Shown here: positions 40,358 through 56,493 of the stretch, one piece after another | Numbering within the stretch: position 1 is the stretch's first letter | Layout of the letters: each line of letters opens with the position of its first letter | NCBI RefSeq assembly: GCF_958304185.1 | Contig: NZ_OY284433.1 | Location: forward strand, 930,001-994,000 | DNA length: 64,000 nt | Source of the DNA: an uncultured Erythrobacter sp. | Lineage (GTDB): Bacteria; Pseudomonadota; Alphaproteobacteria; Sphingomonadales; Sphingomonadaceae | Direction: 5' to 3' | The notes under the pieces: generated by a model | What the model was told of the DNA's origin: nothing | The model's database searches: none | Seen by the model: only the letters and a program-made list of their open reading frames with translations | Translations under genes and position numbers: made by a program

Positions 40358-40433
<76 letters not shown>

Positions 40434-40476
40434 TTTTTCAGTCACTTAGATTATCCGCTCAGACCCATATCTTACT

Positions 40477-40500
40477 GCGGGGTCCCATCGGGGCATCAGA
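40477..40500 (+). repeat. Att-associated motif, copy 1
   Basis: GCGGGGTCCCATCGGGGCAT then CAGA, 43 bases after the tRNA-Thr end. Related to 40631-40654 (same strand), to 53251-53273 (opposite strand) and more weakly to 61431-61452. The position suggests an integrase arm-type binding site. Confidence 0.6.
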
Positions 40501-40540
40501 GAATCGAAAGAATCTGGGCATAGGAAAACGGGGCGGAGGC

Positions 40541-40583
40541 CTTTTAATCAACGGGTCACTGGTTCGAATCCTGTCAGGTCCAC
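40541..40583 (+). other. 3' half of a tRNA-Lys-like gene (attachment-site remnant)
   Basis: The stretch starts in the anticodon loop (CTTTTAA, anticodon TTT) and runs through variable loop GGGTC, T-stem ACTGG, T-loop TTCGAAT, CCTGT, acceptor CAGGTCC and ACC. No D-arm or 5' acceptor precedes it. One T-stem pair is mismatched. A tRNA 3' half beginning at the anticodon loop is what many tyrosine integrases leave as an att copy. Confidence 0.65.
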
Positions 40584-40630
40584 CGTTATTTCAATAACTT
40601 AGGCAGGTATAGGCACCTTTGGAACCCAAA

Positions 40631-40654
40631 TTGGGGTACCAATGGGGCATCAGA
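40631..40654 (+). repeat. Att-associated motif, copy 2
   Basis: TTGGGGTACCAATGGGGCAT then CAGA, 47 bases after the tRNA-Lys-like fragment, the same arrangement as copy 1 after tRNA-Thr. The sequence right after each tRNA end is also similar (TTTCA-T-ACTTAG). Confidence 0.6.
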
Positions 40655-40664
40655 CTTCTTCAAG

Positions 40665-42038
40665 TTACGAGACGTGAACCTGAACATCATAACCCAGTGA
40701 TCTCAGGGCTTTCGACGTTCGACCGTTCCTGGGAGGGAATTTGTCAGGCATCGCCCAGCCGACAAGTTCACCATAGGCGCTGATGCCCATACATTCGAGT
40801 TTCCACTTCGGGTCGGCGACTGCGTCCCAAAGGCGTTCCGGGAGCAGGTCCTCAGACCCTTCGTATAGGATGTGGTGAATCACATCGGTCACTCCAGACC
40901 CGTTTTCAGACCTTGCCTTCCATACGTGCTTGCTCAACGCATCGAGCTTTTCGGGTATCGTGTATTTTACGCCGCTGGTTTGTAGGCCGACGATGCTGTT
41001 TCGCACACGACGCGAAAATTCGATCATTGCATGAACGTCGCTCGCTACCTGGTGGAAATCTGTCTGCGACATTTTTCGAAGCGATTCTTCCTTCAACATC
41101 TCTTGCAGGCGATTGGCGGTCACATTGATCGCCACATCCTCATTGGTGGGCGCACTCGGTAGGTTACGCCACCACTCGATCGCTTGCTCTAGAGCACCGA
41201 CTGGATTGCTTTTGTTTAGCTCAAAGAACCGCTCGTAATCGGCGCGCTTTCCATCGAAGGTTCGATGATAATAGTGCGCGTGAAGGAACTGATCGGCCTG
41301 GGCGCCGTGTGAAGCGGTTGCATTGACCCACTGCGGTCGATTTTCGGCCTGGCTGACGTTAGATCCAATGTCCCGCAGGATTTGTAGCGTGGAATGCCAC
41401 TCCGCGAGAAATGCCGATCTTCTCCGGTCTTCGGCCTTCTTTGGCGATGTATGAACAAGGCCCGACCAATGCTTGATGCTCGGATGCTGCCAAAAGCTCT
41501 CTGAGGGTACTTTCTTAGCCTCTAAGGCCTTAGCCCTGCTGATCATGAGATCGCGTAGCTCTTCGGTGAGCATCGTCGCGTTTTGGTCAAGCTCAACAAA
41601 TAGTCGATTGAGATCTCCTTCAAGCTGGCTGTCAAACTCAGATTCATAAAAGAAACATCCGGCCTCGACGTTGGAGTTCCACGCCGAATATGTGAGATTG
41701 GCCGATCCAATGTAGACCCCAAAACCACGCCACCAGATAACCTTTGCATGGTGATGCTTTACCAGCTTGCAAACGAATTCTGGTGAACGTTTATTGAGAA
41801 ATAGATTCAATATTTCAACTCGAACTGGGACCTCTTCATCGAGGCGACCCCAGAACTTGAGAGGAATGCCTTTGTCAAAACACCAACGGATCAGAGATCC
41901 AGAGTCTGTGGCGTCAGTCGCATAGGCTACCGCAGCCCAAACAGACTCGGTTGCGATCCCATTTTCGCCAACAGCGCCCGCCTCCTCGATTATATCTCGA
42001 AGATAGTTCCCATTGATGCTTCCGAGGATTAGTCGCAA
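40665..42038 (-). CDS. Phospholipase D-fold nuclease-like protein
   Basis: 457 residues from TTG 42038, behind AGGAGA. The N-terminal domain carries one HKD motif (HHAKVIWWRGFGVYIGSANLT, about 93-113: His, Lys, then Gly-Ser-Ala-Asn). A single HKD motif means a dimer is needed for a complete site, as in the PLD nucleases of restriction systems. The rest is helical with no recognised domain. It is divergent from hsdR, so a defence role is likely but inferred. Its codon use is less GC-biased than in the core genes. Confidence 0.75.
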   Translation of the reverse strand: MRLILGSINGNYLRDIIEEAGAVGENGIATESVWAAVAYATDATDSGSLIRWCFDKGIPLKFWGRLDEEVPVRVEILNLFLNKRSPEFVCKLVKHHHAKVIWWRGFGVYIGSANLTYSAWNSNVEAGCFFYESEFDSQLEGDLNRLFVELDQNATMLTEELRDLMISRAKALEAKKVPSESFWQHPSIKHWSGLVHTSPKKAEDRRRSAFLAEWHSTLQILRDIGSNVSQAENRPQWVNATASHGAQADQFLHAHYYHRTFDGKRADYERFFELNKSNPVGALEQAIEWWRNLPSAPTNEDVAINVTANRLQEMLKEESLRKMSQTDFHQVASDVHAMIEFSRRVRNSIVGLQTSGVKYTIPEKLDALSKHVWKARSENGSGVTDVIHHILYEGSEDLLPERLWDAVADPKWKLECMGISAYGELVGWAMPDKFPPRNGRTSKALRSLGYDVQVHVS

Positions 42039-42233
42039 CTTCGAGTTCTCCTATGGGCTCTGACGTGACCGATTGATTTTTCTCCGGAAGGCATAGGGTA
42101 TGCCCACCCCTCTGTAGCCCCTTGAGAGCGGTGTATGTCTTAGCTGATCCTAAATTTCCTTTTACGATAGGCGTGATTTTTGAGTAATTTAAATCCGATG
42201 GTAGGATGCGAAAAGGTCGGCTAGCTTGCCTGC

Positions 42234-45200
42234 ATGAGGACGCAATTCTCAAACTTCCAATTTCTGGAAAAAGCCGAGCCGCAGCTTTATCGGCTAGGGG
42301 CGCTGGCCGAGACGTATTTTTCGGACGATCCCAACACATGTTTGATCAAGTTGCGTCAGCTTTCGGAACTGACCGCGCAGCTGACGGCCTCCCGCTTCGG
42401 CTTGGAGGTTTCTCCGGCCGACAATTTGGCAGACGTGTTGAGGCGCTTGAGATTCGAATGCAGCCTGCCTCGGGAGGTCGGCGATTTGTTTCATTCGCTT
42501 CGGATTGCGGGAAATCAGGCGGCGCATGGGACGGCAGACGATTATTCTGGAGCTCTCAACTCGCTAAAGTTGGCGAGGCAGCTTTCGATCTGGTATTTTA
42601 GGACTTTCCATCGGCCTGCTGAGAAGGTCGGGCCTTTTGTGCCACCTTCCGCGCCGAGCGATGCCAATGAGCAGCTTACCGAAGAACTGAACCGGTTGAG
42701 GGCTGAGCTTTTTGCGACGCAGACAGAGGCTGAACGACTGAAGGCGGAAGCCGAAGCAGCTGCCGAGCAACGAAAATCCGCCGAGGAAATCGCTGCGAGC
42801 GAGCGAGAAGAGCGCACAGTCTGGGAGGCGTTGGCAGAGGAAGCGGAGCGTGCGCGGTTGCACCTCTCTGCTCAACTCCAGGCGGCACTTGCTTCTGCAC
42901 GCAGCGATGATGCGCCAGCGACTGAAATAGTTGCTGAACTCGCGCGTGACGCAGCAGGTCAAATCAGCCTCGATGAGGCGGGGACCCGTGCGATCATCGA
43001 CCAGCAGCTTCGCGACGCCGGTTGGGAGGCGGACACTCCCATACTGCGGTATTCCAATGGCACCAGACCGGTCAAAGGCCGGAATCGGGCAATAGCCGAG
43101 TGGCCAACATTGACCGGGCCAGCGGACTATGCCCTCTTTTGCGGAAAGACGCTTGTCGGGGCGATTGAGGCGAAGCGCCGAAACAAGAATGTTATGGCCG
43201 TCCTGCGACAGGCAGAGCGCTACGCTTCAGACATTCACATGCAGGAAGCGGAGTTTGCCGAGGGCGGACCGTGGGACGAGTTCAAGGCTCCATTTGCATT
43301 CTCGACTAATGGCCGACCTTACCTCAAACAGATCGAAGCGCTGTCAGGCATCTGGCGGCGGGATTTACGAGATCCAATCAACCCCGCCGAAGTGTTGGCG
43401 GGATGGCCGTCGCCGCAAGGCCTCCTCGAGCGTCTTTCAGTCGATTGGAAAGCCGCGACCAATGAGTTGGCCACACGTCCATTCGACTTCGGCTTTCCCC
43501 TTCGCCATTATCAGCGCAACGCCATTGAGGCCGTTGAAGAAGGCTTGGCCGAAGGCCGCAAAGCCATGCTTGTCGCAATGGCCACGGGTACCGGCAAAAC
43601 CAAGTTTGCCATCGCCATGCTCTATCGTCTGATTTCAGCGAAGCGCTTTCGGCGGGTCTGCTTTGTTGTCGACCGCAGCGCGCTAGGGCGTCAGACGAAG
43701 GATGAGTTCACCACCACAAAGGTCGTAAATGGCAAAGCCTTCGCCGATATCTTCGGCCTCAAGGGCCTCGCCGATGTCGCGCCGGATGAAGACACCCGCG
43801 TTCATATCTGCACGATTCAGGGCTTGGTGCGTCGGGTGCTCTATTCCGAGAGTGCCCAGGATGCGCCACCGATTGATCAATATGATCTGCTGGTGGTCGA
43901 CGAATGCCATCGTGGCTACCTCCTGGATCGCGAAATGTCGGACAGCGATCTCAGCTTCCGAGACCAATCTGACTACGTGTCGAAGTATCGGCGCGTGCTG
44001 GAGCATTTCGATGCCGTCAAAATCGGGCTGACAGCCACCCCCGCGCTCCACACCACTGACATCTTCGGCGAACCGATCTTCACCTATTCCTACCGCGAAG
44101 CGGTCGTCGATGGCTTCCTCAACGACCATGAGCCACCAATCCGGATTGCCACCAAGCTGTCAGAGGGCGGTATCCAGTTCGTACGCGACGAAGCCGTAGA
44201 TTTCGTGCACCCGGGCACGGGCCAGGTGGAAACCGTAACCCTGCCCGATGAAATCGGGTTTGAGGTCGAGCAGTTCAACAAGAGTGTCGTGACGGTTCCG
44301 TTCAACCGGGCAATTGCCCGGGAGCTGGTCAAATACATCGACCCTGCCGATCCTGACAAAACCTTGATCTTCGCTGTCTCGAAGGCGCATGCCGACATCC
44401 TTGTAAAGGAGCTGCGCGACGCATTCCGCGATGCCTATGGCCCAATGAAGGATGAAACAGTCCAGCGCTTGACCGGCGATGTCGACAAGATCGAAAATCT
44501 CATCCTCGCGTTCCGCAATGATCCCCTGCCAAAGGTCGCGGTCACGGTCGATTTGCTCACCACCGGTATCGACGTCCCCAAGATCACCAACCTCGTGTTC
44601 ATGCGGCGGGTGAACAGCCGCATCCTCTACGAGCAAATGTTGGGGCGCGCGACGCGCCTCTGCCCGGAGATCGGCAAGGAGGGCTTCCGCATTTTCGATG
44701 CGGTTGACCTCTATGCGCACCTCCAGAACATGACGGACATGAAGCCGGTCGCGGCTGATCCCGAGTTCACGCTGACCAAACTGTTCGAAGAGCTGCAGGG
44801 GCGCGGTGATGCCGAGCACAAGAACCGTGTCCGCGAGCAAATCATCGTCCGCCTGCGCCGCCGGCTCAAAAAGCTGTCGCCTGAGGCGCGGGCCAAGTTT
44901 GAGATTGAAGCTGGCGAAACGCCCGAAGCCAGCCTTGATCGCTTTGTCAAAGGCGATCCGATTGATTTGGCAATCTGGGCTGCCGACCGGCCCAATCTGG
45001 GCCCGATCCTCGACTGGACGAACGAGGACGGAACCCCTCGCATGCTCCCGATATCGGAGCATCCCGACGAAGTGACCAGCGTGACGCGCGGCTATGGCTC
45101 CGCTGACAAGCCGGAAGACTTTCTCGACAAGTTTGCCCAGTTCGTCCGTGACAACGTTAACCGGATTGCCGCGCTGCGAATCATAGTCCAGCGCCCGCAA

Positions 45201-45614
45201 GAACTAACCCGCGAGGAGTTGCGGCAGCTCAGGCTCGCGCTCGACGCAGAAGGTTTCACCGACAGCAAGATCAAGCGCGCCTGGGTCGATGCCACCAATC
45301 AGGACATTGCCGCTTCTATCGTGGGCTACATCCGCCAGGCTGCTATTGGCGACCCGCTCGTTCCCTATGCAGACCGCGTGCGCCTCGCCGTTGATGCGAT
45401 CTTGCGCAAGCGTGACTGGACGGACGTGCAGCGCAAATGGATCGAACGGATCGGCCGCCAGCTTGAGCTTGAAATCGTGGTGGATCGGTCCGCGTTCGAT
45501 GCCGAGCCTTTTGCCTCGCTTGGTGGCTGGCCACGCATCGACCGGGTGTTTAATGGCGATCTGGAACAGGTCGTTCGCGACCTCAATGAGAGCATTTGGA
45601 AAGAGGCAGGATAA
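42234..45614 (+). CDS. hsdR: Type I restriction enzyme R subunit (HsdR)
   Basis: 1126 residues. A DUF4145-like helical N-terminus (about 10-125), a coiled coil (140-215), the HSDR_N nuclease region (about 240-340; GAIEAKRRNKNV has the Lys of the PD-ExK site) and an SF2 translocase with Walker A MATGTGKTKF (about 447-456), DECH (about 552) and late QMLGRATRL. A helical C-terminal domain follows. It cleaves DNA that lacks the host methylation after ATP-driven translocation. The stop overlaps the hsdM start by one base. Confidence 0.95.
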   Translation: MRTQFSNFQFLEKAEPQLYRLGALAETYFSDDPNTCLIKLRQLSELTAQLTASRFGLEVSPADNLADVLRRLRFECSLPREVGDLFHSLRIAGNQAAHGTADDYSGALNSLKLARQLSIWYFRTFHRPAEKVGPFVPPSAPSDANEQLTEELNRLRAELFATQTEAERLKAEAEAAAEQRKSAEEIAASEREERTVWEALAEEAERARLHLSAQLQAALASARSDDAPATEIVAELARDAAGQISLDEAGTRAIIDQQLRDAGWEADTPILRYSNGTRPVKGRNRAIAEWPTLTGPADYALFCGKTLVGAIEAKRRNKNVMAVLRQAERYASDIHMQEAEFAEGGPWDEFKAPFAFSTNGRPYLKQIEALSGIWRRDLRDPINPAEVLAGWPSPQGLLERLSVDWKAATNELATRPFDFGFPLRHYQRNAIEAVEEGLAEGRKAMLVAMATGTGKTKFAIAMLYRLISAKRFRRVCFVVDRSALGRQTKDEFTTTKVVNGKAFADIFGLKGLADVAPDEDTRVHICTIQGLVRRVLYSESAQDAPPIDQYDLLVVDECHRGYLLDREMSDSDLSFRDQSDYVSKYRRVLEHFDAVKIGLTATPALHTTDIFGEPIFTYSYREAVVDGFLNDHEPPIRIATKLSEGGIQFVRDEAVDFVHPGTGQVETVTLPDEIGFEVEQFNKSVVTVPFNRAIARELVKYIDPADPDKTLIFAVSKAHADILVKELRDAFRDAYGPMKDETVQRLTGDVDKIENLILAFRNDPLPKVAVTVDLLTTGIDVPKITNLVFMRRVNSRILYEQMLGRATRLCPEIGKEGFRIFDAVDLYAHLQNMTDMKPVAADPEFTLTKLFEELQGRGDAEHKNRVREQIIVRLRRRLKKLSPEARAKFEIEAGETPEASLDRFVKGDPIDLAIWAADRPNLGPILDWTNEDGTPRMLPISEHPDEVTSVTRGYGSADKPEDFLDKFAQFVRDNVNRIAALRIIVQRPQELTREELRQLRLALDAEGFTDSKIKRAWVDATNQDIAASIVGYIRQAAIGDPLVPYADRVRLAVDAILRKRDWTDVQRKWIERIGRQLELEIVVDRSAFDAEPFASLGGWPRIDRVFNGDLEQVVRDLNESIWKEAG

Positions 45615-47083
45615 TGAACGGACCCAGGGCGCGCGAGACCGTTCAAAAGCTTTGGAACGCCAGCAAGAGCCTGCAGGGCGGTGGCGTCAGCTACTACGAA
45701 TACGTCACCGAATTGACCTATCTTTTGCTGCTCAAGATGCTGGAGGAGGTTTCTAGGGACGGCAAGAAACTCGAGGAGCGGCTTCCCGCAGAGTACAGGT
45801 GGAAGGCGTTGAAGGCCAAGGAAGGGGAAGAGCGTCTACAATTCTACCGGACGCTTCTGGTGACCCTTGGCGACAAATCGAAGGTCAATTTCACATTGGT
45901 CAATCAGGTCTTCACTGATGCGAAAACCTCGCTGACCAAGGCCACCGCACTCACCTCTCTCATTACCACGATCGACAATGTGGACTGGTATGCGGCGGAA
46001 GAGGACGGGCTAGGCGACCTCTACGAAGGCCTGCTCGAACGGACTACTTCGGAACGCAAATCTAAAGCCGGGCAGTACTTCACGCCGCGCCCGTTGATCG
46101 ACACCATCATCAAGCTGGTGCAGCCGAAGGCCGGGGAGATTATCCAAGACCCGGCAGCTGGAACCGGCGGCTTCCTGATCTCAGCGCATAGCGCAATCTT
46201 GCGCGACACTGATGACCTGATGAAGCTGAGCCCGGAAATGGCTCATTTTCAGCGCAACAACGCCTTCCAGGGCGCGGAGTTGATCACTGGCACGCATCGG
46301 CTCAATACGATGAACCTACTGCTGCACGGAATCGACCAACCGATCGACTGCATCGACGCCCTTACGGCGGACGCGGAGAAGTTTGACCCCGCCGATCTGA
46401 TCCTCACCAATCCGCCGTTCAACAAGTTTCCCGAAAGCACCACACGCAGCGACTTTGTGATCACTGCGGAATCACGCAAAGGTCCGCTGCCGTTCATGGA
46501 ACATGTCGTGCGGGGCCTGAAGGTCGGTGGCCGCGCAGCCATCGTCATTCCCGACAACATCCTGTTCGAAGACAATATGGGCCGCGATCTGCGCAATTGG
46601 CTGATGGACCTGTGCGACCTGCACACCATCCTTCGCCTTCCCACCGGCATTTTCTATGCGCAGGGCGTGAAGACCAATGTGATGTTCCTCACCAAGAAAT
46701 CCGAGGCACGGATCGGAGCAACCAAGCAGGTCTGGTTCTATGACCTGCGCGCGCAAATGCCGAACTTCGGCAAAAGCCGTGTGTTGACCGCTGAAGATTT
46801 TGCACCCTTCATCAAGGCTTATGGCGCTGACCCTCTGGGGGCCGCCAAGCGCGAGGATGAGGGCGAAAACGGGCGTTTTCGGGTCTTTACCCGGGAAGAG
46901 ATCGCAAAGCGCAATGACAATCTCGATATCAGTTGGCTTCGCGAAGACGAGGAAGTTGTAGAGGAAGGACTGACCGAACCCGACGACATTGCCGCCGCCA
47001 TCCTTGGCCACCTTCGCGCCGCTCTGGAGGAGATTGAGTCAGTGGCTGATGAGCTGGCCGAGACTGCCGAGGTCGATGCATGA
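45614..47083 (+). CDS. hsdM: Type I DNA methyltransferase M subunit (HsdM)
   Basis: 489 residues. N6-adenine methyltransferase of the type I system. Helical N-domain (1-140), SAM motif DPAAGTGGFLI, catalytic TNPPFNKFPE (about 265) and a long C-terminal tail. With HsdS it forms the modification enzyme, and with HsdR the restriction enzyme. The start in TAATG is coupled to hsdR. The order R-M-x-S, with a GIY-YIG gene between M and S, is uncommon but known. Confidence 0.95.
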   Translation: MNGPRARETVQKLWNASKSLQGGGVSYYEYVTELTYLLLLKMLEEVSRDGKKLEERLPAEYRWKALKAKEGEERLQFYRTLLVTLGDKSKVNFTLVNQVFTDAKTSLTKATALTSLITTIDNVDWYAAEEDGLGDLYEGLLERTTSERKSKAGQYFTPRPLIDTIIKLVQPKAGEIIQDPAAGTGGFLISAHSAILRDTDDLMKLSPEMAHFQRNNAFQGAELITGTHRLNTMNLLLHGIDQPIDCIDALTADAEKFDPADLILTNPPFNKFPESTTRSDFVITAESRKGPLPFMEHVVRGLKVGGRAAIVIPDNILFEDNMGRDLRNWLMDLCDLHTILRLPTGIFYAQGVKTNVMFLTKKSEARIGATKQVWFYDLRAQMPNFGKSRVLTAEDFAPFIKAYGADPLGAAKREDEGENGRFRVFTREEIAKRNDNLDISWLREDEEVVEEGLTEPDDIAAAILGHLRAALEEIESVADELAETAEVDA

Positions 47084-48003
47084 CCGCTGAAATCTTCGGC
47101 CGCACTATTCAGCTTTTCCTCGTCGATGGCACGCCCACAGGCCTGCGCAAGGCGACCATCCATGGCTGGACCGGGCTCACCTTCGTCGCCACCGGCACCA
47201 CCTTTGCCGCGCTCACCGCCCGGCCAGAACTGGACCGCACGGGCATCTACATCCTCTCCGGCCCAGATGCCGAAGCGGTGGGCGGCACGCGCGCCTATAT
47301 CGGCTCAGCCAATAGCGTGCGGGAGCGGATCAAGCAGAGCGCGGCGCAGCGCGAGTTCTGGGAAACTGCAATTGCCGTCACCACCAGCGATGATGATCTT
47401 TCCAAGGGCCATGTCGAGTATCTGGAGGCGCGGCTTATTCAGATGGCAACTGAGGCGAACCGCGTCACGCTCGACAACAGCACCAGCCCCGCCGGGCAGC
47501 GCCGCCGCCTGCCAGAGGCGGATCAGGCGAATATGGAACAGTTCCTCGCCAATCTGAAAATCATCCTGCCGGTGGTCGGGCTCGACCTGCTCAAGCCGCA
47601 GCCGCGCGCGGTGACCCAGGCGGCCACCCCGGTGGCGCAGCGCACCAGCGGCGAGATGACTTTCGAAATCCGCCACAAGTCCGGCGTGCAGGCGCAGGCG
47701 GTGGAGGAAGATGGCGAATTCGTAGTGCTGGAGGGCTCCCAGGCGCTGAAGGACACCGGCTATGTTCAGCAGAGCTATGGCGCGTTGAAAGGCAATCTGG
47801 TCAAGCAAGGCGTGCTGCAACCTGGTGCAGATGGCCGTTACACCTTCGTCAAGCCTTACAGCTTTTCCAGCCCCTCCGCCGCTGCTGCCGTCGTGCTGGA
47901 TCGCAACAGCAATGGCCTGTCAGAATGGAAGGTGAAGGGTGAGAAGCGGACCTATAATGACGTGAAGCAGGGTCGGATTGCCGCCGATGGGGTGGGCGCA
48001 TGA
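47080..48003 (+). CDS. GIY-YIG nuclease-like protein with DUF4357 domain
   Basis: 307 residues, starting in an ATGA overlap with hsdM. Residues 53-95 show a GIY-YIG signature (TGIYILSG, then AYIGSANSVRERI), with a following Glu (EYLEARL) as the metal ligand. The C-terminal 60 residues (SFSSPSAAAAVVLDRNSNG) match DUF4357, a domain found in proteins encoded within type I restriction operons. It may be an accessory nuclease or control factor. It overlaps hsdS by ATGA. Confidence 0.85.
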   Translation: MTAEIFGRTIQLFLVDGTPTGLRKATIHGWTGLTFVATGTTFAALTARPELDRTGIYILSGPDAEAVGGTRAYIGSANSVRERIKQSAAQREFWETAIAVTTSDDDLSKGHVEYLEARLIQMATEANRVTLDNSTSPAGQRRRLPEADQANMEQFLANLKIILPVVGLDLLKPQPRAVTQAATPVAQRTSGEMTFEIRHKSGVQAQAVEEDGEFVVLEGSQALKDTGYVQQSYGALKGNLVKQGVLQPGADGRYTFVKPYSFSSPSAAAAVVLDRNSNGLSEWKVKGEKRTYNDVKQGRIAADGVGA

Positions 48004-49580
48004 CCGACTTGCCAACTGGCTGGGCTGAAGCCACGGTTCTGGAGCTTGCTGGTCACAACAGCGTCGTAACTGACGGTGACTGGGTCGAAAGCAAGGATCA
48101 GGATCCTTTGGGACCCGTGCGGCTGATTCAACTAGCGGACATTGGCGATGGGTTCTTCGTCAATAAATCACAGCGGTTCATGAATTCTGAGACGGTTGAG
48201 CGTTTGAACTGCACCCACCTTCATGAGGGCGATGTTCTTATCGCTCGAATGCCCGATCCGCTAGGCCGGGCCTGCATCTTCCCTGACATAGGGCAACAAG
48301 CGGTAACCGCGGTAGACGTTTTTGTTTGGCGTCCCGATCACAAGTTGGCGGGCGCGGAACCCCGTTGGCTCATGCACACCATTAACTCCCCTGTCGTTCG
48401 GTCGGCGATACAGAGCGAAGCGGGCGGAACTACAAGGCAGCGGATTGCAGGCGGCAAGCTGAAGCAGCTTCGATTGCCGGTGCCACCGATCCCCGAACAG
48501 CGGAGGATTGTGGCGAAGGTGGATGGATTGACCGCGCGCACCGCCCGCGCCCGCAAAGAGCTGGATCGCATCCCCACCCTCATCGCCCGCTACAAGCGGA
48601 CATTGTTAGAAGAGACCTTCGAACGCCTTGCCATCGAACACGGCACATTTCCTTTGATCGAGCTAACGACAAAAATTGGTAGTGGAGCCACCCCTAGAGG
48701 CGGTTCGAGCGTCTATGTGCCGACCGGAACACCCTTCATTCGCTCTCAGAACGTCTATTTCGAGGGCTTCGATTACGACGGACTGGTCTACATAGACGAG
48801 GCAGCCGCAAACGCCCTTTCAAACGTTACGACTGAGGCTGATGATGTCCTCCTTAACATAACTGGGGCATCAATTGGCAGGGCCACGATTCTTCCCAGTG
48901 AATTGGTAGGCGCGCGAGTGAACCAGCACGTATCGATTCTTCGCTGCAAACCGAGGTTGCTGAACTCTTTCCTTCTGTATTTTCTGTGGTCGCCGGAAAT
49001 GCAAAAAATGATCAACGACGAAAACTATGGTGTCACGCGGCAGGCGCTAACTAAGGGCATGATCGAAAATTTTGCTGTTCCTTTGCCGACCCTTGAAGAA
49101 CAAGCCGAGATCGTCCGCCGCATCGAGGCCGCTTTTGGTTGGCTGGACCGCGTCACTGCAGATCACGCCGCAGCCGTCCACCTCCTGCCAAAATTCGACA
49201 CTGCCATCCTCGCCAAAGCATTCCGCGGCGAACTCGTTGCCCAGGACCCGAACGATGAACCGGCTAGTGTGCTGCTGGACCGGATCAAGCGAGAGCGGGA
49301 GGCCGACGGCAATAAGCCGAAGATCGGGCGTGGACGTAAGCCGAATGGATCGAAAGCAATGACAGAAAAGCCGCTATTGCCGCGGGACCGGCTCCTGAAA
49401 GACAGCGAAAAGTGGCCCGCTGTTGGCCTTCCTTTTGAAGACATCGCCATGCGCAACCCAATACCCCACGATGAATTGCGAGATGCCTTGTTTGAGCTGC
49501 TATCCGGCTCGTCACCCATTTTGCAGCAGCGCTTCGATGCCGCAGCAGAAGTAATGGTCATCCAACGGGTCGCAGCGTGA
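48000..49580 (+). CDS. hsdS: Type I restriction-modification specificity subunit (HsdS)
   Basis: 526 residues. Two target-recognition domains (about 1-160 and 210-375), each followed by a conserved helical spacer (PPIPEQRRIVAKVDGLTARTARAR, then PTLEEQAEIVRRIEAAFGWLDRVTADH). The domains decide which half-sites are recognised; the site cannot be predicted. About 100 residues at the C-terminus (from ~430, MTEKPLLPRDRLLK) form an extra basic then helical domain not usual in HsdS. The stop overlaps the next GTG start. Confidence 0.93.
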   Translation: MTDLPTGWAEATVLELAGHNSVVTDGDWVESKDQDPLGPVRLIQLADIGDGFFVNKSQRFMNSETVERLNCTHLHEGDVLIARMPDPLGRACIFPDIGQQAVTAVDVFVWRPDHKLAGAEPRWLMHTINSPVVRSAIQSEAGGTTRQRIAGGKLKQLRLPVPPIPEQRRIVAKVDGLTARTARARKELDRIPTLIARYKRTLLEETFERLAIEHGTFPLIELTTKIGSGATPRGGSSVYVPTGTPFIRSQNVYFEGFDYDGLVYIDEAAANALSNVTTEADDVLLNITGASIGRATILPSELVGARVNQHVSILRCKPRLLNSFLLYFLWSPEMQKMINDENYGVTRQALTKGMIENFAVPLPTLEEQAEIVRRIEAAFGWLDRVTADHAAAVHLLPKFDTAILAKAFRGELVAQDPNDEPASVLLDRIKREREADGNKPKIGRGRKPNGSKAMTEKPLLPRDRLLKDSEKWPAVGLPFEDIAMRNPIPHDELRDALFELLSGSSPILQQRFDAAAEVMVIQRVAA

Positions 49581-51193
49581 GGCTCCGACGGCTTCAAGTT
49601 ACCCGCGCTTCGACATGCGGTGGTCTGCTTGACGGGGCCGACATTTGGCTGGGCCGAGCAGAGACGGAAACGAACAACGAGCCGCTGGAGCCGCTTTGCC
49701 TGCTTGGGCCGAATGGTTCCGGCAAATCCCAGTTTCTACAACTGGTGGCTGAGATATTCCAAGCGGCTTGGCATGCCCATGCCCCTGAGGAAGAGCGAGA
49801 TTCAGCCAACTCCGATGCGATCTTCGAACTCGAATACCTGATCAAGCCCATTAAGGGCGATCCCCATGCTCTGGTGAAGTTGTCTCGCGGGGTTATGGGC
49901 AAGTCCGTCGGGCCTATCGAGCTCCATGTTCAGAAAGATGGCGACTGGGTTTCCATCAAGCCTGGAACCCCAGAGTTTGGTAAGCATTTGCCCTCGCTGA
50001 TCATCGGTTACACGTCCGGCGACAATGAGACGATGAGCCTGCCGTTCATGGTCAGCCGGGCGGGCTATGCCAAAGATGTGCGGGAAAGCGCTTTGGGGAA
50101 AAAGAAAGCTCCAAAGAAGCCCCTCGATAATAGAACTATGCTGATTGACTATGGCACGAACCTAGAGGTTTTGTTCGCCAATTTGACGATGGGCGGATCA
50201 GATCTTCGCAAGGATATCTTCAAGCACGCCCGCCTTGAGGATCTTGCCTCGTGCCGGTGCACCATCCGATTAGCGCATTCCGCAGCGCCCAAAGCTCCGG
50301 CTTCGGTCAAGAAAATCGGGGGCCGTAAGGGCATCCAGCTCACGGGTGAGCTTGAGGTTATCCTGAAGAAGCTGAAGCGCTCTGCCACCTGTTGGCATTT
50401 GGACGAGAAGACGGAGACTTATAAGTTCGATTATCTCGTCGATGGTGCGACGCGGCAAGCATTGTCGCACTTTTTCACCAATGCGCTCGACCTCTATAGA
50501 TCGTTGCACAAGCTCGCTTTGCTTAATGATCTTGTAATTCCAAAAGCGGCACGAGACCGAATGCGCAAGGCGGTCAACGAACGTAAATTCGCGACCCGGC
50601 TGCCCGAGCCGCAGCAGGAGGACATGGTTTTTGCGTTTGAGGAGGTGCAGTTCCATCCGTCATCCGACAAGGCCGACCGCACTCCAGTTGACTATGTCGC
50701 ATTGTCTGACGGCGAGCATCAGCAGTCCCTGATCCTTGGCCTGTTCTCAATGATCACTGATCATAACGCGCTGTTTTTGCTCGACGAGCCAGAATCGCAC
50801 TTCAACCCGCAATGGCGCGTGCAGTTCGTGAAGCGCTTGCTCAGTCTGCAGGTCGGCCGGGGGGAGCAGGATGTGTTGCTCACGTCGCATGCGCCATTCG
50901 TACCGGCAGACATTTCACGCGAACAGGTGCTGATCTTCAAGCGGCATGGCGACACCATCGAAGTCGGCAATCCGGAAATCGAAACATTCGGAGCGAACTT
51001 CGACCGCATCCTGGAGCATTGCTTCGAGATCAGGCCGCCGCTTTCGCAGATGGCGCAGGATAGGATCGAGGAACTCCTCGACAGCAGTGACATTGAAAAG
51101 CTTGAAGCCGCACTTCCGCAGCTAGGTGCGTCTGTCGAAAAGTCCTTCGTCGCCGACCATTTAAGGCAGTTGAAGAAGGGGCAGGCGAGCTAG
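49577..51193 (+). CDS. Restriction-associated AAA/ABC-type ATPase (PtuA-like)
   Basis: 538 residues from GTG 49577, in a GTGA overlap with hsdS. An ABC/SMC-like ATPase: Walker A GPNGSGKS (44-51), signature LSDGEHQQ (about 376), Walker B LFLLDEPE (about 399), H-loop TSHAP (about 436). Such ATPases pair with an HNH nuclease in Septu (PtuA/PtuB) systems and are also found attached to type I operons. Its job may be to sense phage or control the nuclease. It overlaps the following HNH gene by one base. Confidence 0.88.
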   Translation: MRLRRLQVTRASTCGGLLDGADIWLGRAETETNNEPLEPLCLLGPNGSGKSQFLQLVAEIFQAAWHAHAPEEERDSANSDAIFELEYLIKPIKGDPHALVKLSRGVMGKSVGPIELHVQKDGDWVSIKPGTPEFGKHLPSLIIGYTSGDNETMSLPFMVSRAGYAKDVRESALGKKKAPKKPLDNRTMLIDYGTNLEVLFANLTMGGSDLRKDIFKHARLEDLASCRCTIRLAHSAAPKAPASVKKIGGRKGIQLTGELEVILKKLKRSATCWHLDEKTETYKFDYLVDGATRQALSHFFTNALDLYRSLHKLALLNDLVIPKAARDRMRKAVNERKFATRLPEPQQEDMVFAFEEVQFHPSSDKADRTPVDYVALSDGEHQQSLILGLFSMITDHNALFLLDEPESHFNPQWRVQFVKRLLSLQVGRGEQDVLLTSHAPFVPADISREQVLIFKRHGDTIEVGNPEIETFGANFDRILEHCFEIRPPLSQMAQDRIEELLDSSDIEKLEAALPQLGASVEKSFVADHLRQLKKGQAS

Positions 51194-52278
51194 TGCTGTT
51201 TTCTTATTCGCCGGTCGGATTTCAGGATAACTGGCTTCATGACACCCTGATCGAAATGCTGACCACCGATATGGCAAGGGTGGACGGGGGACTGGCGCGC
51301 TTAGCTTGGCCAGCCTGCATTCCACCAGATCACACGGAAGCGCTCCGGCGAAAGTACGGGCTGAGAAATCGGCGGGCCACATTTCTTGATCGTTATGAGG
51401 CCTTGGGTGTGCCTGATCGAACTGATGTCCGTGGTGCGGTGGCTCGACACAATTCGTTTCCGGCAATTTTTGACGACGTACTGCCTTGCGTCTGCCTGGC
51501 CGATCTCGCGGCTGCTATTCGTGACCCAATCAAAAGCCTTTTCGAGTTTGCGTTCAACCTCCTGACAGACCTCGGATTGCGCGACACTAACTACAAGCGG
51601 CTGTATGATGAGTTGGATTATAAGGTTTGCGGCTTTTGTGGCGTGGAATTGCTCGATGCACCGGGCCAGAAGCGGGAAGCACTGGATCACTATCTTCCTA
51701 TTGCTGCCTACCCTTTTGCAGGCACGAACTTTCGTAATCTCTCGCCGATGGGTACAAAGTGTAATTCACGCTATAAGCTTCAGCAAAACATCCTTTTCGA
51801 TCCAGCTACAGGCAATCGCCGCGTGTGTTGCGATCCCTATGATAGCCCAACAATCTCATTATCTTTGAACGGTAGTCGCCCGTTCGACGGCCCGCGCGTC
51901 AATCTCGTGACCTGCCCGGAGTGGGCCTTTCAATGGGAAGGCGGCGATCCTGAAAAACTTCGGACCTGGGAATCAGTCTTCTCGATATCCGAGCGCTATC
52001 GGGAGTCGTCGCTTAACCCAAATTTCCGAAGCTGGATTGACCATTTTTGCCAATGGGCAGCGCGCCAGCCAAATGAAGCCAACGTTCCTCATTTGATGCG
52101 TGATCTACTAGATGAATTTGCTGAAATCATCGTCCCCGAAGGGTTCGCGGAAGCGGCCTTCCTAAAGCGGGCCACATTTCAGATGTTCGCTAACCATTGC
52201 AACACAACGGAAGGCGGCACTCGCCTTCATGAACGGTTGTATGGTCAGATCGCCGAGCGTCGAAACTTGGCTGCCTAG
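51193..52278 (+). CDS. HNH-type endonuclease (PtuB-like)
   Basis: 361 residues from GTG 51193 (TAGTG overlap with the ATPase gene). CGFCG (about 146-150) and a late CNSRYK bracket DHYLPIAAYPFAGTNFRNL (from about 165), the pattern of an HNH nuclease with an HNH/zinc finger. It probably forms a toxin-like nuclease controlled by the ATPase. It is the last gene of the six-gene chain; the next gene starts after 184 bases. Confidence 0.82.
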   Translation: MLFSYSPVGFQDNWLHDTLIEMLTTDMARVDGGLARLAWPACIPPDHTEALRRKYGLRNRRATFLDRYEALGVPDRTDVRGAVARHNSFPAIFDDVLPCVCLADLAAAIRDPIKSLFEFAFNLLTDLGLRDTNYKRLYDELDYKVCGFCGVELLDAPGQKREALDHYLPIAAYPFAGTNFRNLSPMGTKCNSRYKLQQNILFDPATGNRRVCCDPYDSPTISLSLNGSRPFDGPRVNLVTCPEWAFQWEGGDPEKLRTWESVFSISERYRESSLNPNFRSWIDHFCQWAARQPNEANVPHLMRDLLDEFAEIIVPEGFAEAAFLKRATFQMFANHCNTTEGGTRLHERLYGQIAERRNLAA

Positions 52279-52462
52279 GCCTCGTCACCGAAGCACATTT
52301 AGCTGGCCGACTTGGGACGTACGCAGACTGCACCTGGCCGTAGGATTTCGGAGAAACAGATTCTCCAGAGACGCACAAACCGGTTGAGCGAGCGTCCGGA
52401 GACTGGCCCTGAGATGCGGCTCACCTTGCTGTATGTTACTACCTCAAAGGCAGGAGACTAAC

Positions 52463-53065
52463 GTGGGTGGAATAGGATCGGGAGCTAAGCGATCGGCGCG
52501 CGTGGCTGACGTGGAGGAAATGCTGGCGCTCGACGTTCGCACCCTACGGCGATTAGGCGCGCTTCAGGCCGGTGAATGCATCATCTACACGGTGCAGTGG
52601 TCACAACGCGGCCTGAGAGGTGCCAGCGTGCGCCTACGCAGCGATTTGAGCGACATGGAGCGTGGCGGGGTCATCACGATCGCTGGGACGATGCCAGATG
52701 ACCCTATCAGGCAGGATATCGCCATAGAGCCAGTGTCAGCAGGCTTTGGCGGCTACCGCCTCTATTTCATTTGCCCGGTGACCGCCGATCGGTGCGAGGT
52801 GCTGTATTATGCCAGAGGCAGGTTCGCGTCCCGCCGCGCCCATCGCCTGAGCTACATGAGCCAGAACCTGACCGACCTCTCCCGCGCGCGACGCAAGGTC
52901 GCCAAACTCAGCGCACGCCTTGAAGGTAGGGCAGGGTTTCGCCGCCCACGTGGGGGCAACCGAACCGAAATGGTCGATCGGCTGCATGACGCCGCGCTCG
53001 ATGCGCACGCGCTGTATGTTGAAAAGCTGAGATCACGCGTTGAAGGGTCTGGTACCCGATTGTGA
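52463..53065 (+). CDS. MGGIGSG-type hypothetical protein with degraded zinc-ribbon
   Basis: 200 residues from GTG 52463, behind AGGAGA. The opening GGIGSG and the late CP...CEVLYYARGRFASRRAHRLSYMSQ block resemble a family common in sphingomonads and mobile elements, whose members have CxxC pairs there. In this copy the second pair reads S-RR-A, so zinc binding is probably lost. The function is unknown; a nucleic-acid-binding role for the family is inferred only. Confidence 0.65.
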   Translation: MGGIGSGAKRSARVADVEEMLALDVRTLRRLGALQAGECIIYTVQWSQRGLRGASVRLRSDLSDMERGGVITIAGTMPDDPIRQDIAIEPVSAGFGGYRLYFICPVTADRCEVLYYARGRFASRRAHRLSYMSQNLTDLSRARRKVAKLSARLEGRAGFRRPRGGNRTEMVDRLHDAALDAHALYVEKLRSRVEGSGTRL

Positions 53066-53250
53066 CCCAGCTGAAGGCATAGGGCATCCGAGACCGCGAA
53101 AATTTGCGCGGTGGGCGCCGATCCGAGGCTGATTGTATATCAGCGGGTCGCAACAGAGTTTCAAAGCCTTAAGTTTTGGGGACCCACCGCATCATCGTCA
53201 AAAATGAAGTCAGAGGATTGTTTTTGCTTCACAAAATACAAGCTTTGCTC

Positions 53251-53273
53251 CTGATGCCCCATTGGGACCCCGC
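53251..53273 (-). repeat. Att-associated motif, inverted copy 3
   Basis: On the minus strand, GCGGGGTCCCAATGGGGCAT then CAG. It matches the copies at 40477 and 40631 but is inverted, closing the restriction block. It may mark an old element end. Confidence 0.6.
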
Positions 53274-53304
53274 GACCCTCTTCAATGTTCTTTGAGCGCC
53301 ACGT

Positions 53305-53631
53305 TCATCGTGAACTATCGCGCCACTCGCGATATTCCGGAATGCAAGAATAGGCCGCCTCGACGTTCCTCAGGGGAATGCGATGAGTTCGAACCATGAG
53401 CCGTTTGATCATGTTTAACTGACTGATCAGCTCCGCAACCGATTGCTCAGCCCACCACGAATAAGACGCGCCATCGGTCATGTGGTACGCCAGCTCTCCA
53501 AGGTCGCGCGGTCGAAATATTGCAACTTCTCCCGGTTCTGCGCCGTGCGGAGCACGCGGACAGCATCGAGGTTGCCACGCAACGACAGCTAATTTGATCG
53601 GGATGTCGATAAGTGATGACGGAGGTTTCAT
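53305..53631 (-). CDS. Small hypothetical protein
   Basis: 108 residues from ATG 53631 (a GTG two codons earlier is possible). No recognised domain; mixed composition with YSCIPEYREW near the end. No strong ribosome site is seen. It lies alone between the restriction block and the replication module, so it may be a real small gene or a chance frame. Confidence 0.45.
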   Translation of the reverse strand: MKPPSSLIDIPIKLAVVAWQPRCCPRAPHGAEPGEVAIFRPRDLGELAYHMTDGASYSWWAEQSVAELISQLNMIKRLMVRTHRIPLRNVEAAYSCIPEYREWRDSSR

Positions 53632-53751
53632 GATCACAATACTACCCGAATGATTTGAAGAGAAATCTCAGGCTTCCTGGGATTTTGCCTGACAGCCTCT
53701 CCGAACCCGTCTTAATGGGTCGGTCGTTCCAACAACCAAGGAGAGAACGAC

Positions 53752-54030
53752 ATGACCAATACCTCTACCGACCTTGGCGCCAAGGCGCAGTCCAAGATCA
53801 ACACTGAGCAAGCCGACAATGGCGCGCCCGATGTGATCACGCTCGAGCAGCTTGCCCACGAGGCTGGGGTTTCGCCACGCGATGCCCGGATGCTGCTTCG
53901 CCTCGCGGCCAAGCAAACGAAGCAGTACCCGAACCTAGGCAAGGAACATTCCGCTCGCCAACCTTGGCAATGGGCACAGGGATCAAAGGCATTAGCAGAA
54001 GCGCAAAAGGCTCTTGCACCTCAACCGTGA
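53752..54030 (+). CDS. Small helix-turn-helix-like protein of the replication module
   Basis: 92 residues, behind AAGGAG with ATG 53752. The centre (VITLEQLAHEAGVSPRDARMLLRLAA) looks like a helix-turn-helix, and a QPWQWAQGS segment follows. It may regulate the element. It is convergent with the RepA-like ATPase gene (gap of 50 bases). Confidence 0.65.
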   Translation: MTNTSTDLGAKAQSKINTEQADNGAPDVITLEQLAHEAGVSPRDARMLLRLAAKQTKQYPNLGKEHSARQPWQWAQGSKALAEAQKALAPQP

Positions 54031-54080
54031 TCACAAATGAGCGCCAAGCACATATATACAAATGTTTGGCGCTCATTCGC

Positions 54081-55259
54081 TCATTTTAATTTCCACTCCG
54101 CGCCCGGTCCCTTGCCGGAAATAACGCCCGCAATCTTTTTTGCCCTATCGATGGTTCGATCACTGTACCCCTCAGATAGAAGACGATTAATCGCATCCCG
54201 CGCCTTCATCGGAAGTGGTGTGAGAAGTGCAGTAATTCGAGCCGCCGCCATTTCATCAACCTTCAGCTTTTCCGAGCCTTGTCTGATTTGATCGGCTGTT
54301 TCGTCGAGTTCGGCGAGCCACTTAATCGTCGGCACAGAGCCGCTAGGGCTTGGGCAGATTTCAAATGTCAGTGATGGCCCTGTCGCTGACCAATTGGCCT
54401 TGGGGTGCGCTAAGACCCTTGTGCTTGGGTCTACTGGATGTGGAAAGACTATGAGGCCTGACCGCACAGCCGCGATGAAGTCCATTGAACCCTGACCCGC
54501 CTCAATCGCGAGATCACCACTCCCTTTCCGTAAGTGCCGCACAATTAGGATGGCGATGTTCAATTCACGGGCAAGCAGAGCAAGCGGTTGCATAAATCCT
54601 CTAACTTCCGTCGCTTTGTAGGAGTTTGTGTCTGGCGCTAAAAAGGGAGGTAAAGGATCAATCACCACTAGCTGTGCCGGATAATCAGTCAGCTCTTTTC
54701 TAAGCAGCTCGCGTCCATACTCATCGAGGCAGTGAGGGGTGGCCATGAATCGGATGCCATTGAGTTTGGCCCCATGCGCCTCAAGGCGTGGCCGAAGGAC
54801 GCGATCAGCATCGTCCTCGGGTGCCATAAAAAGAACACGCCCCTTCCGCACGTTATGCCTTCCAGCAAACTGGCCACCACTTGAGACTGCCGCTGCCAAT
54901 TGTGTGGTCACCAACGATTTACCTTGGCCGGGGTGACCATCGAGCATCGTCAACGCACCAAGCGGTATAAACGGATCGACCAAAAATTCGGGAGTTTTGC
55001 ATTCAACTTCGTGAAGGTTCGCAAAATATTCCTCATTGCTATCAGCCTTCACAATCTTCCAAGCTTCTTGGAACGCTTTCCTGAAATCTTCGTCATCAAG
55101 TGGCGGTGCGTTGACTTGTTCATCAAGCACGATCGCCATGTTTTGCGCTTGATCCCTGCTCATACCTCGAGCGCCCCAAGCGGAGACAGAGGCCACAAGT
55201 TCGCGCGTCCGCCCAGAATCTTTGAGCCGCAAACGCCGACGGCTGCTTTGCCCACTCAT
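54081..55259 (-). CDS. RepA-like hexameric helicase/ATPase (AAA_25 type)
   Basis: 392 residues. A RecA-fold ATPase with Walker A DGHPGQGKS (about 106-114), a VVIDPLPPFL Walker B strand and IAILIVRHLRKGSG. Such proteins serve as replicative helicases in plasmids of the RSF1010 type and in phage satellites. A winged-helix-like C-terminus follows (about 340-385). The start overlaps the primase stop by ATGA, so helicase and primase are made together. Confidence 0.82.
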   Translation of the reverse strand: MSGQSSRRRLRLKDSGRTRELVASVSAWGARGMSRDQAQNMAIVLDEQVNAPPLDDEDFRKAFQEAWKIVKADSNEEYFANLHEVECKTPEFLVDPFIPLGALTMLDGHPGQGKSLVTTQLAAAVSSGGQFAGRHNVRKGRVLFMAPEDDADRVLRPRLEAHGAKLNGIRFMATPHCLDEYGRELLRKELTDYPAQLVVIDPLPPFLAPDTNSYKATEVRGFMQPLALLARELNIAILIVRHLRKGSGDLAIEAGQGSMDFIAAVRSGLIVFPHPVDPSTRVLAHPKANWSATGPSLTFEICPSPSGSVPTIKWLAELDETADQIRQGSEKLKVDEMAAARITALLTPLPMKARDAINRLLSEGYSDRTIDRAKKIAGVISGKGPGAEWKLK

Positions 55260-56173
55260 TGTCCCGCCTCCAGCTTTGCACGAACGCGAGCGATTTCTTG
55301 CTCTGCTACATCAATGTCCGGGCCATGCTTATCGAGAAAATAAACATTGACCAAAAGCACCGCTGCGATTTCGGAATCGGTTGCCTTAGCTTGGACGAGT
55401 CCGGATATGATCATGAAAATCGCCTTTGATCGATCTGCCATCATCATCCGTTTCGCGGTCATCAGCGTTCTCGCTGAAAGACCGACCGCACGCCGATATT
55501 TTCTCATGACATCGTTCGCGGAAACCCCATCCAGGTTCACGGAAACAACTTCGGGCAGTGCCTTCATCGAGACATGCTTCGATAGAACCGGCGGCAAAGC
55601 TTGAGGTTCGCTATTCAAAGCTACCAGCTTGACGAAGGGGTTATCGTAGTCCGGCTTGTGATTTATAGTGCCCGGAAGGCGAAGGAGTTTCGTGACGGAC
55701 CAACCGCCAAGGTCACCCCCGCATCGGTATACAAGGTTCTTCGAATACTGCTCAGCGATAAGGCCGGGCGCTGTATCGTTCCAAATCCAAATGCCCTGAT
55801 GCCGACCGGGTGATGTGCGCCAAAGAATGTTGGCTTTCGGACTATAGCCGTTTGGATCAGCGTCATCGATGTCGCAATGAGCATACTTTGTCGGCAGCGC
55901 GAATTCCTTACGACGCTCTGGCCTGCTAAAGGCATAGGGACAGAAGTAGACATCGTGCTGCTCTGGAGAGAACTGCTCAAGGATCTCGGCAATCTCAGGC
56001 GCACGGTCACCATTGACCGAGTGCGTGTTCCAACCGGCAGCGCCTCGGGTCATCAAAAACGTATAGGCGTCAGATTCATAGTCCCAAAGTGTCGTCAGAA
56101 ACCTGGTAGCAACCCGAACAGCTGTGTGATTCCAGCGACCCAGAGCGAGTGGGCGATATTGGAAGGGAACCAT
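55256..56173 (-). CDS. RepB-like DNA primase
   Basis: 305 residues from ATG 56173. The archaeo-eukaryotic-type primase core shows the metal DxD in AHCDIDDADP, then SPGRHQGIWIW and LLRLPGTINHK, a pattern found in primases of plasmids and mobile elements. The C-terminal part (about 200-305) is helical. It would prime replication initiated with the RepA-like helicase. The stop overlaps the helicase start, and its own start overlaps the AlpA-like stop (TGATG). Confidence 0.8.
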   Translation of the reverse strand: MVPFQYRPLALGRWNHTAVRVATRFLTTLWDYESDAYTFLMTRGAAGWNTHSVNGDRAPEIAEILEQFSPEQHDVYFCPYAFSRPERRKEFALPTKYAHCDIDDADPNGYSPKANILWRTSPGRHQGIWIWNDTAPGLIAEQYSKNLVYRCGGDLGGWSVTKLLRLPGTINHKPDYDNPFVKLVALNSEPQALPPVLSKHVSMKALPEVVSVNLDGVSANDVMRKYRRAVGLSARTLMTAKRMMMADRSKAIFMIISGLVQAKATDSEIAAVLLVNVYFLDKHGPDIDVAEQEIARVRAKLEAGQ

Positions 56174-56382
56174 CACGCCGCCTCCCGCGCAGATGCTAGC
56201 GTTTCAACATGCGCCAGAACCTCATGCGCCAGCCATGCGACCGATCGATCCCCAAGGCGCAGGCGCTTGGGAAATTGGCCGTGGGCTTCAAGCCGAAGCA
56301 AAGTTGAGGGCGACAGGGTAATGCCGAGGCGCGGGAGGTCGTCCCGCGTCAATAGGATCTTATTTGAATTTAGTGCCGTCAT
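56173..56382 (-). CDS. AlpA-family excisionase/regulator
   Basis: 69 residues. A small winged helix (LLTRDDLPRLGITLSPSTLLRLEAHGQFPKR) with an RSVAWLAHEV end, as in AlpA/Xis-type proteins. In P4-like elements these proteins promote excision or activate the integrase. First gene of the AlpA-primase-helicase chain, on the minus strand. The 111-base gap upstream probably holds its promoter. Confidence 0.85.
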   Translation of the reverse strand: MTALNSNKILLTRDDLPRLGITLSPSTLLRLEAHGQFPKRLRLGDRSVAWLAHEVLAHVETLASAREAA

Positions 56383-56493
56383 GATCGTAACCTTTCGTCG
56401 TCGTTATTGACGGCGAATTATTAGGACCATGGCGCCAAGAGATTCTACAGAGGCAAATGAAAGCGTTACCGTGCAACCTGGTGGCAATTTCAT

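What the first reader, a model, noticed from the sequence alone, without database searches (positions are those of the whole stretch)
42234..52278. Type I restriction system translationally fused to a GIY-YIG protein and a Septu-like ATPase/HNH pair
Six genes run hsdR-hsdM-GIY-YIG/DUF4357-hsdS-ATPase-HNH. Every junction overlaps: TAATG, ATGA, ATGA, GTGA and TAGTG. The last two genes resemble PtuA/PtuB. Tight coupling suggests that the nuclease pair acts together with, or as a back-up to, the restriction enzyme, for example as a response to restriction failure or to anti-restriction proteins.
Basis: partly seen in the sequence, partly recalled or inferred. Interest (0 to 1): 0.75.

Follow-up and report, generated by a model that had tools for sequence, protein, structure and literature searches.

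The report
Type I methyltransferase with Septu-like nuclease
A bacterial DNA-labelling enzyme appears to come with its own built-in ATPase-and-nuclease weapon, related to those of Septu and retron defences, and many relatives lack the usual DNA-cutting motor, which suggests that the labelling enzyme itself controls the weapon.

Summary

The six-gene order is not the conserved unit. In 48 TIGR04435-type loci (47 plus the window), HsdS lies directly upstream in 46 of 47 evaluable and HNH directly downstream in 46 of 46. HsdR is present in 18, absent in 23, unscored in 7.

HsdS ends in a predicted winged-helix tail. It was found only beside this ATPase: 2 of 385 and 2 of 219 genomes, the same genomes both ways. 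It diverges with the ATPase rather than with its own target-recognition domains.

Best reading: M-S-ATPase-HNH is one machine, methyltransferase complex as sensor, PtuAB-like pair as effector, HsdR and GIY-YIG optional. Trigger and substrate are inferred. ATPase/HNH pairs beside restriction systems are in print; I found no print record of the HsdR-less core or the tail.

The parts
42234..45614 (+). hsdR, type I restriction subunit (1126 aa); optional in relatives
   Evidence: NF008521 1515 bits; Walker GTGKT at 452 and DECH at 556; HsdR in 18 of 41 scorable loci
45614..47083 (+). hsdM, N6-adenine methyltransferase (489 aa), DPAAGTGG and NPPF motifs present
   Evidence: N6_Mtase 4.9e-69; PADLOC MTase_I 6e-189; motifs
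47080..48003 (+). GIY-YIG / DUF4357 protein (307 aa), optional accessory
   Evidence: DUF4357 4.3e-15; PADLOC PDC-S14 4.2e-111; inside the operon in L001, L009 (54-aa fragment), L011, L012, L041
48000..49580 (+). hsdS, specificity subunit (526 aa) with two target-recognition stretches and a C-terminal tail
   Evidence: Methylase_S 9.2e-23, two stretches
49380..49568 (+). Winged-helix tail of HsdS (about aa 461-523), proposed dock for the ATPase
49577..51193 (+). PtuA-like ABC ATPase, TIGR04435 (538 aa)
   Evidence: TIGR04435 387 bits, cut-off 300; PADLOC PtuA1 2.6e-39; best solved relatives retron Ec78 PtuA 2.8e-13 and Septu PtuA 2e-10
51193..52278 (+). PtuB-like HNH protein (361 aa)

Best explanation
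The conserved machine is hsdM-hsdS-ATPase-HNH. HsdM and HsdS form a sequence-specific methyltransferase that marks the host's own sites and recognises unmarked ones. HsdS carries at its C-terminus a dedicated winged-helix domain on which the PtuA-like ATPase with its PtuB-like HNH partner is held (inferred). When the M-S complex meets unmethylated target sites, as on incoming phage DNA, it licenses the ATPase/HNH pair to act (inferred). The pair may then cut DNA, or cut tRNA and abort the infection, as related PtuAB pairs have been reported to do (not tested here). In effect the pair stands where HsdR stands in an ordinary type I system, or where the reverse-transcriptase/msDNA sensor stands in retron Ec78. 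In this window a true HsdR and a GIY-YIG protein are added, so the system probably has two effector arms on one sensor. Shown here: gene order and junctions, families, the tail and its exclusivity within the genomes searched, loss or gain of HsdR, and the PtuB-like fold of the model. Inferred: docking, trigger and substrate.
For: HsdS directly upstream of the ATPase in 46 of 47 and HNH directly downstream in 46 of 46 evaluable loci, while HsdR is absent in 23 of 41 scorable. On a tree of 40 ATPases HsdR presence needs 10 changes, at least 7 forced by supported branches, shuffled mean 11.3. Seven whole genomes and two plasmid records with the core gave no hit to two HsdR models. Catalytic HsdM motif NPPF kept in 19 of 21 HsdR-less hsdM genes examined. 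In 8 of 14 close pairs compared both recognition domains are replaced (23-40% identity) while ATPase (74-87%) and tail (57-88%) are kept. Tail distances track the ATPase (r 0.85; 0.71 with HsdM held fixed) and not the same protein's recognition domains (0.04 with ATPase held fixed), 0 of 2000 permutations as high. Tail strong hits and TIGR04435 coincide: 2 and 2 of 385, 2 and 2 of 219. Tail folds as a winged helix. HNH model resembles retron Ec78 PtuB.
Against: No binding, cleavage or phage assay exists. Tail and ATPase gene are neighbours, so shared inheritance by linkage could give the same correlation. HsdR is kept in 18 loci, so where it is present the pair cannot be its replacement. Foldseek alone did not rank PtuB significantly (best E of any chain 0.51), and sequence profiles gave no PtuB hit for this HNH family. 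HsdR absence rests on two models and my own profile; PF04313 sees the window's own HsdR only weakly. The five most divergent HsdS (L035, L042, L043, L044, L057) did not match the tail profile, and tails of still more distant relatives show no detectable sequence kinship with it. One locus, L036, has a broken ATPase with no HsdS or HsdM.
Confidence: 0.5

Rival explanations
1. The M-S complex holds the PtuAB-like toxin pair inactive; a phage anti-restriction protein that binds the M-S complex (a DNA mimic or Stp-like factor) releases it, and the pair kills the infected cell, perhaps by cutting tRNA.
For: PrrC precedent: embedded in a type IC locus and activated when T4 Stp inhibits the enzyme (passage of PMC12707154). 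Retron-Eco7 PtuAB is toxic when expressed without its sensor and depletes tRNA-Tyr (passages of PMC11555353); Septu EcB88 cuts tRNA-Tyr (passages of PMC13096335). The pair is tied to HsdS, which DNA mimics bind (recalled).
Against: With no HsdR there is no restriction to guard in 23 of 41 scorable loci. Kept HsdM catalysis (19 of 21) and replaced recognition domains in an HsdR-less pair (L027/L029) are not needed for a mere bait.
Confidence: 0.25
2. Independent passenger: a Septu-like module that hitch-hikes in type I operons for co-expression and transfer, with no physical link to M-S.
For: Defence genes cluster, and the V. cholerae TgvAB pair embedded in a type I locus acts as its own type IV system and occurs mostly outside such loci (PMC11411939 abstract and section 10).
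Against: Unlike TgvAB, this family was not seen intact without HsdM and HsdS in 46 of 47 evaluable loci. The HsdS tail is exclusive to the pair in the genomes searched, and the S-ATPase overlap is nearly invariant.
Confidence: 0.15
3. Auxiliary nuclease of a conventional type I enzyme: HsdR cuts as usual and the pair degrades the products or sharpens HsdR's action; HsdR-less loci use an HsdR encoded elsewhere.
For: HsdR is present in the window and 17 other loci; 16 of 25 genomes or records with loci lacking (or cut before) HsdR have some HSDR_N gene elsewhere.
Against: 9 of those 25 have none by PF04313 and none by NF008521; HsdR presence is scattered over the ATPase tree almost at random.
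Confidence: 0.1

Closest known systems
Retron Ec78 / Eco7 (type I-A retron; 'Septu type II' in PADLOC), PtuA-PtuB effector with RT-msDNA sensor
   Different: No reverse transcriptase among the operon's genes by Pfam; the partner is a type I methyltransferase with a winged-helix-tailed HsdS.
Septu type I (PtuA-PtuB alone)
   Same: ATPase plus HNH pair; PADLOC PtuA1 2.6e-39. H-to-N spacing in the HNH core is 16 residues here (H166-N182) as in Septu EcB88 (H75, N91, passage of PMC13096335).
   Different: Not a two-gene stand-alone system: HsdS directly upstream in 46 of 47 evaluable loci; below the NCBIfam PtuA cut-off (26 of 500 bits).
TIGR04435 'restriction system-associated AAA family ATPase' and OLD-ABC/HNH dyads beside RM and BREX systems
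   Same: Same ATPase family over its cut-off. [quoted passage not shown]
   Different: Those passages do not mention the HsdS tail, the loss of HsdR, or a role as main effector of the methyltransferase; I could not read Krishnan 2020.
PrrC in EcoprrI
   Same: ABC ATPase-linked toxin inside a type I locus (PMC12707154 passage).
   Different: PrrC carries a HEPN anticodon nuclease in one chain (recalled); here a separate HNH partner, and HsdR is often absent.
TgvAB in the V. cholerae VPI-2 type I cluster
   Same: Two-gene nuclease system embedded in a type I RM locus (PMC11411939, abstract and section 10).
   Different: GmrSD family; 1,341 stand-alone hits against 79 five-gene clusters in that paper, whereas this pair was tied to HsdM/HsdS in 46 of 47 evaluable loci.

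Membership tests
TIGR04435 restriction system-associated AAA ATPase | score over the curated cut-off (300 bits) | tested here: met
   387 bits over residues 1-533
Type I restriction-modification | HsdM with AdoMet and NPPF motifs | tested here: met
   N6_Mtase 4.9e-69; motifs
Type I restriction-modification | HsdS with two target-recognition domains | tested here: met
   two Methylase_S stretches; both vary between close relatives in 8 of 14 pairs
Type I restriction-modification | HsdR translocase/nuclease | tested here: met
   met in the window; absent in 23 of 41 scorable relatives
Septu (PtuAB) | PtuA-type ABC ATPase | tested here: met
   PADLOC PtuA1 2.6e-39; solved PtuA 2e-10; but only 26 of the 500 bits needed for NCBIfam PtuA
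Septu (PtuAB) | PtuB-type HNH nuclease next to PtuA | tested here: inconclusive
Septu (PtuAB) | stand-alone two-gene system | tested here: not met
   HsdS directly upstream in 46 of 47 evaluable loci
Retron type I-A | reverse transcriptase beside ptuAB | tested here: not met
   no RT family in the Pfam scan of the operon and its neighbours
PrrC-type guard | nuclease silenced by the RM complex and released by an anti-restriction factor | not testable with these tools
   needs an experiment
PARIS | Toprim nuclease AriB beside the ATPase | tested here: not met
   the partner carries a C..C-DH-N-CN-K core, no Toprim hit

The most novel reading that the evidence does not exclude
M-S-ATPase-HNH is a separate class of restriction system in which a type I methyltransferase, through a winged-helix tail on HsdS, directly commands a PtuAB-like nuclease and needs no HsdR motor. 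Retron I-A, Septu and this system would then be one effector plugged into different sensors. The same plan (tailed HsdS, ATPase, HNH) seems to exist in further, sequence-unrelated tail families.
Probability: 0.4. Interest if true: 0.78.

Novelty: new variant of a known kind. Interest (0 to 1): 0.62.

Why it matters
What switches PtuAB-type nucleases on is only partly known. If a methyltransferase of known site specificity is the switch, the trigger can be controlled at will by methylating or not methylating the DNA. It would also show that the costly HsdR translocase can be dropped from type I immunity, and would explain why PtuA-like ATPases so often sit beside hsdS.

Tried and rejected
Six-gene order as the unit: rejected, since the exact order was seen only in the window and L011 (L041 has one extra gene). 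HsdR partner or back-up role: weakened. Tail as a general HsdS feature: rejected for the genomes searched. Of 385 genomes of the window's class, 90 have an HsdS at PF01420 E 1e-5; the tail's two strong hits are in G000 and G348, and G348's HsdS is itself below that PF01420 threshold. The two weak tail hits there (G116 0.0032, G169 0.0062) are an ABC transporter and a ferritin. These searches score a limited number of first-look candidates per genome. Stand-alone origin on phages: no match in the phage records; three full loci in viral contigs (L055-L057) may be prophage or misassigned. DNA of the closest enterobacterial ATPase: no match in E. coli genomes. Homology between this tail and the tails of more distant ATPase-linked HsdS: not detected (hhalign probability 0.8% and 0.4%; 20% between the two distant sets). 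Sequence search for solved relatives of tail and HNH: nothing convincing. Foldseek alone: nothing significant for either model. Literature searches for TIGR04435, Septu with HsdM/HsdS, HsdR-less systems and HsdS winged helices gave no paper that, in what I saw, describes this system; Krishnan 2020 (PMC7544218), the likeliest, is not held.

Full report
Observation. The six genes lie where stated, on the + strand, and the five junctions read as described. Family scans give HsdR, HsdM, a GIY-YIG/DUF4357 protein (PADLOC candidate PDC-S14), HsdS, a TIGR04435 ATPase and an HNH-like protein. The HNH protein has no Pfam or NCBIfam hit at E 0.01, but shows C146, C149, D165, H166, N182, C190, N191 and K195 in 40 of 40 aligned sequences. 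The ATPase's SDGEHQ and DEP motifs are likewise in 40 of 40, and its Walker G-NG-GKS in 39.

What is conserved. I collected 47 TIGR04435-type loci besides the window: 37 from the genome scan, 4 plasmids, G487, G348 and G940 from whole-genome searches and 3 viral contigs. With the window that is 48. HsdS is directly upstream of the ATPase in 46 of 47 evaluable loci (L032 starts at the ATPase; L036 has a broken ATPase and no HsdS). HNH is directly downstream in 46 of 46. HsdR is present in 18, absent in 23 with at least 3.5 kb upstream of hsdM, and unscored in 7 (recounted in 111). In two of the 23, L006 and L014, less than 3 kb follows the ATPase. On a tree of 40 ATPases HsdR needs 10 changes, at least 7 of them forced by supported branches, against a shuffled mean of 11.3, so it comes and goes almost freely. 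Among 25 genomes or records whose locus lacks HsdR or is cut before it, 9 gave no hit to PF04313 or NF008521: 7 genomes, two of whose locus records are titled complete chromosomes (L002, L007), and 2 plasmids. PF04313 sees the window's own HsdR only weakly, so absence is model-dependent. The HsdS-ATPase overlap is -4 nt in 34 of 38 loci measured and -1 in 2.

Tail evolves with the ATPase. In 30 loci with all parts, tail distances correlate with ATPase distances at 0.85, HNH 0.74, HsdM 0.69 and the recognition domains of the same protein 0.42; with HsdM held fixed tail-ATPase is 0.71, with ATPase held fixed tail-HsdM is 0.20 and tail-recognition domains 0.04; 0 of 2000 permutations reach the tail-ATPase value. 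In 8 of 14 close pairs both recognition domains have been replaced while ATPase (74-87%) and tail (57-88%) stay; in the other 6 pairs the recognition domains are still alike. One replaced pair, L027/L029, is HsdR-less on both sides. Because tail and ATPase gene adjoin, linkage could produce the same correlation; it is support, not proof, of contact.

Mechanism. HsdR-less loci keep the HsdM catalytic NPPF motif in 19 of 21 hsdM genes examined (L004 and L007 have split ORFs) and keep the HNH core. A methyltransferase, a varying recognition subunit and an intact nuclease pair, without HsdR, are best read as self/non-self discrimination in which the pair is the effector and the HsdS tail its dock. 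Whether activation is by unmethylated sites (preferred, 0.5) or by capture of the M-S complex by an anti-restriction protein (0.25) cannot be told from sequence. Substrate: retron-Eco7 PtuAB depletes tRNA-Tyr and an earlier Septu was described as cutting DNA (passages of PMC11555353); Septu EcB88 cuts tRNA-Tyr in the variable loop (passages of PMC13096335). Either is possible here.

Wider family. Nine sub-cut-off TIGR04435 matches in the 219 genomes were fetched. Eight sit directly behind an HsdS (L069 is cut at the contig end), and a HNH-type protein follows: by profile or NCBIfam in L067, L068, L070, L073 and L074, by eye only in L069, L071, L072 and L075 (L067's ATPase is split, with another ORF between). 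L070, L071 and L072 show no HsdR in the fetched stretch. Their HsdS C-ends also look like small helical domains, but hhalign finds no kinship with the A1 tail, and their fold was not predicted.

Known or new. NCBI already names the ATPase 'restriction system-associated', so the association is known at the level of annotation. PMC12839542 (section 35, part 1 of 2 read) describes OLD-ABC/HNH dyads as backup effectors in BREX and says that such couplings were reported in RM-like systems by Krishnan 2020, which I could not read. Embedded defence pairs in type I loci are also known: PrrC (passage of PMC12707154) and TgvAB (PMC11411939, abstract and section 10). Apparently new, within searches, are the HsdR-less four-gene core, the dedicated winged-helix tail on HsdS and its joint divergence with the ATPase. 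I file it as a new variant of a known kind.

Noticed in passing
window 40665-42038 (-): PLD-domain gene (PF13091; weak DrmC similarity, far below the NCBIfam cut-off), divergent from hsdR and next to tRNA-Thr; no homologue turned up by phmmer in the loci fetched.
   Followed up: partly
window 40358-58958: Mobile island signs: tRNA-Thr 40358-40433, RepB-primase/AAA_25 genes 54081-56176 (-), tyrosine integrase 57101-57844 (-), IS3-type transposase 57927-58958 (-). No direct repeat of 18 nt or more marking its ends was found.
   Followed up: partly
window 61714-62109: Three tandem copies of a 132-nt repeat, 84-86% alike, inside a (-) ORF.
   Followed up: no
L054 9415-11696 (own genome, contig C2): A second PtuA/AriA-like ATPase followed by a 283-aa gene with a weak AriB match; PARIS-like.
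   Followed up: partly
L041 8710-9507; L001 6704-7504: An extra gene between hsdM and the GIY-YIG gene; in L041 it matches Pfam 8xMP (octameric membrane protein, 6.3e-36), and L001 has a homologue.
   Followed up: partly
L053 11573-12382: HsdS of this locus is interrupted by an opposite-strand 269-aa ORF with no Pfam or PADLOC match.
   Followed up: no
L058-L062, L068, L070-L075: Other ATPase families behind HsdS in type I clusters with HNH-type partners and different HsdS C-terminal tails; some in R-S-ATPase-HNH-M order.
   Followed up: partly
L002-L006, L008, L030: A gap of 85-154 nt between hsdM and hsdS in this HsdR-less group, against a 4-nt overlap in many others; a promoter or small ORF was not looked for.
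   Followed up: no
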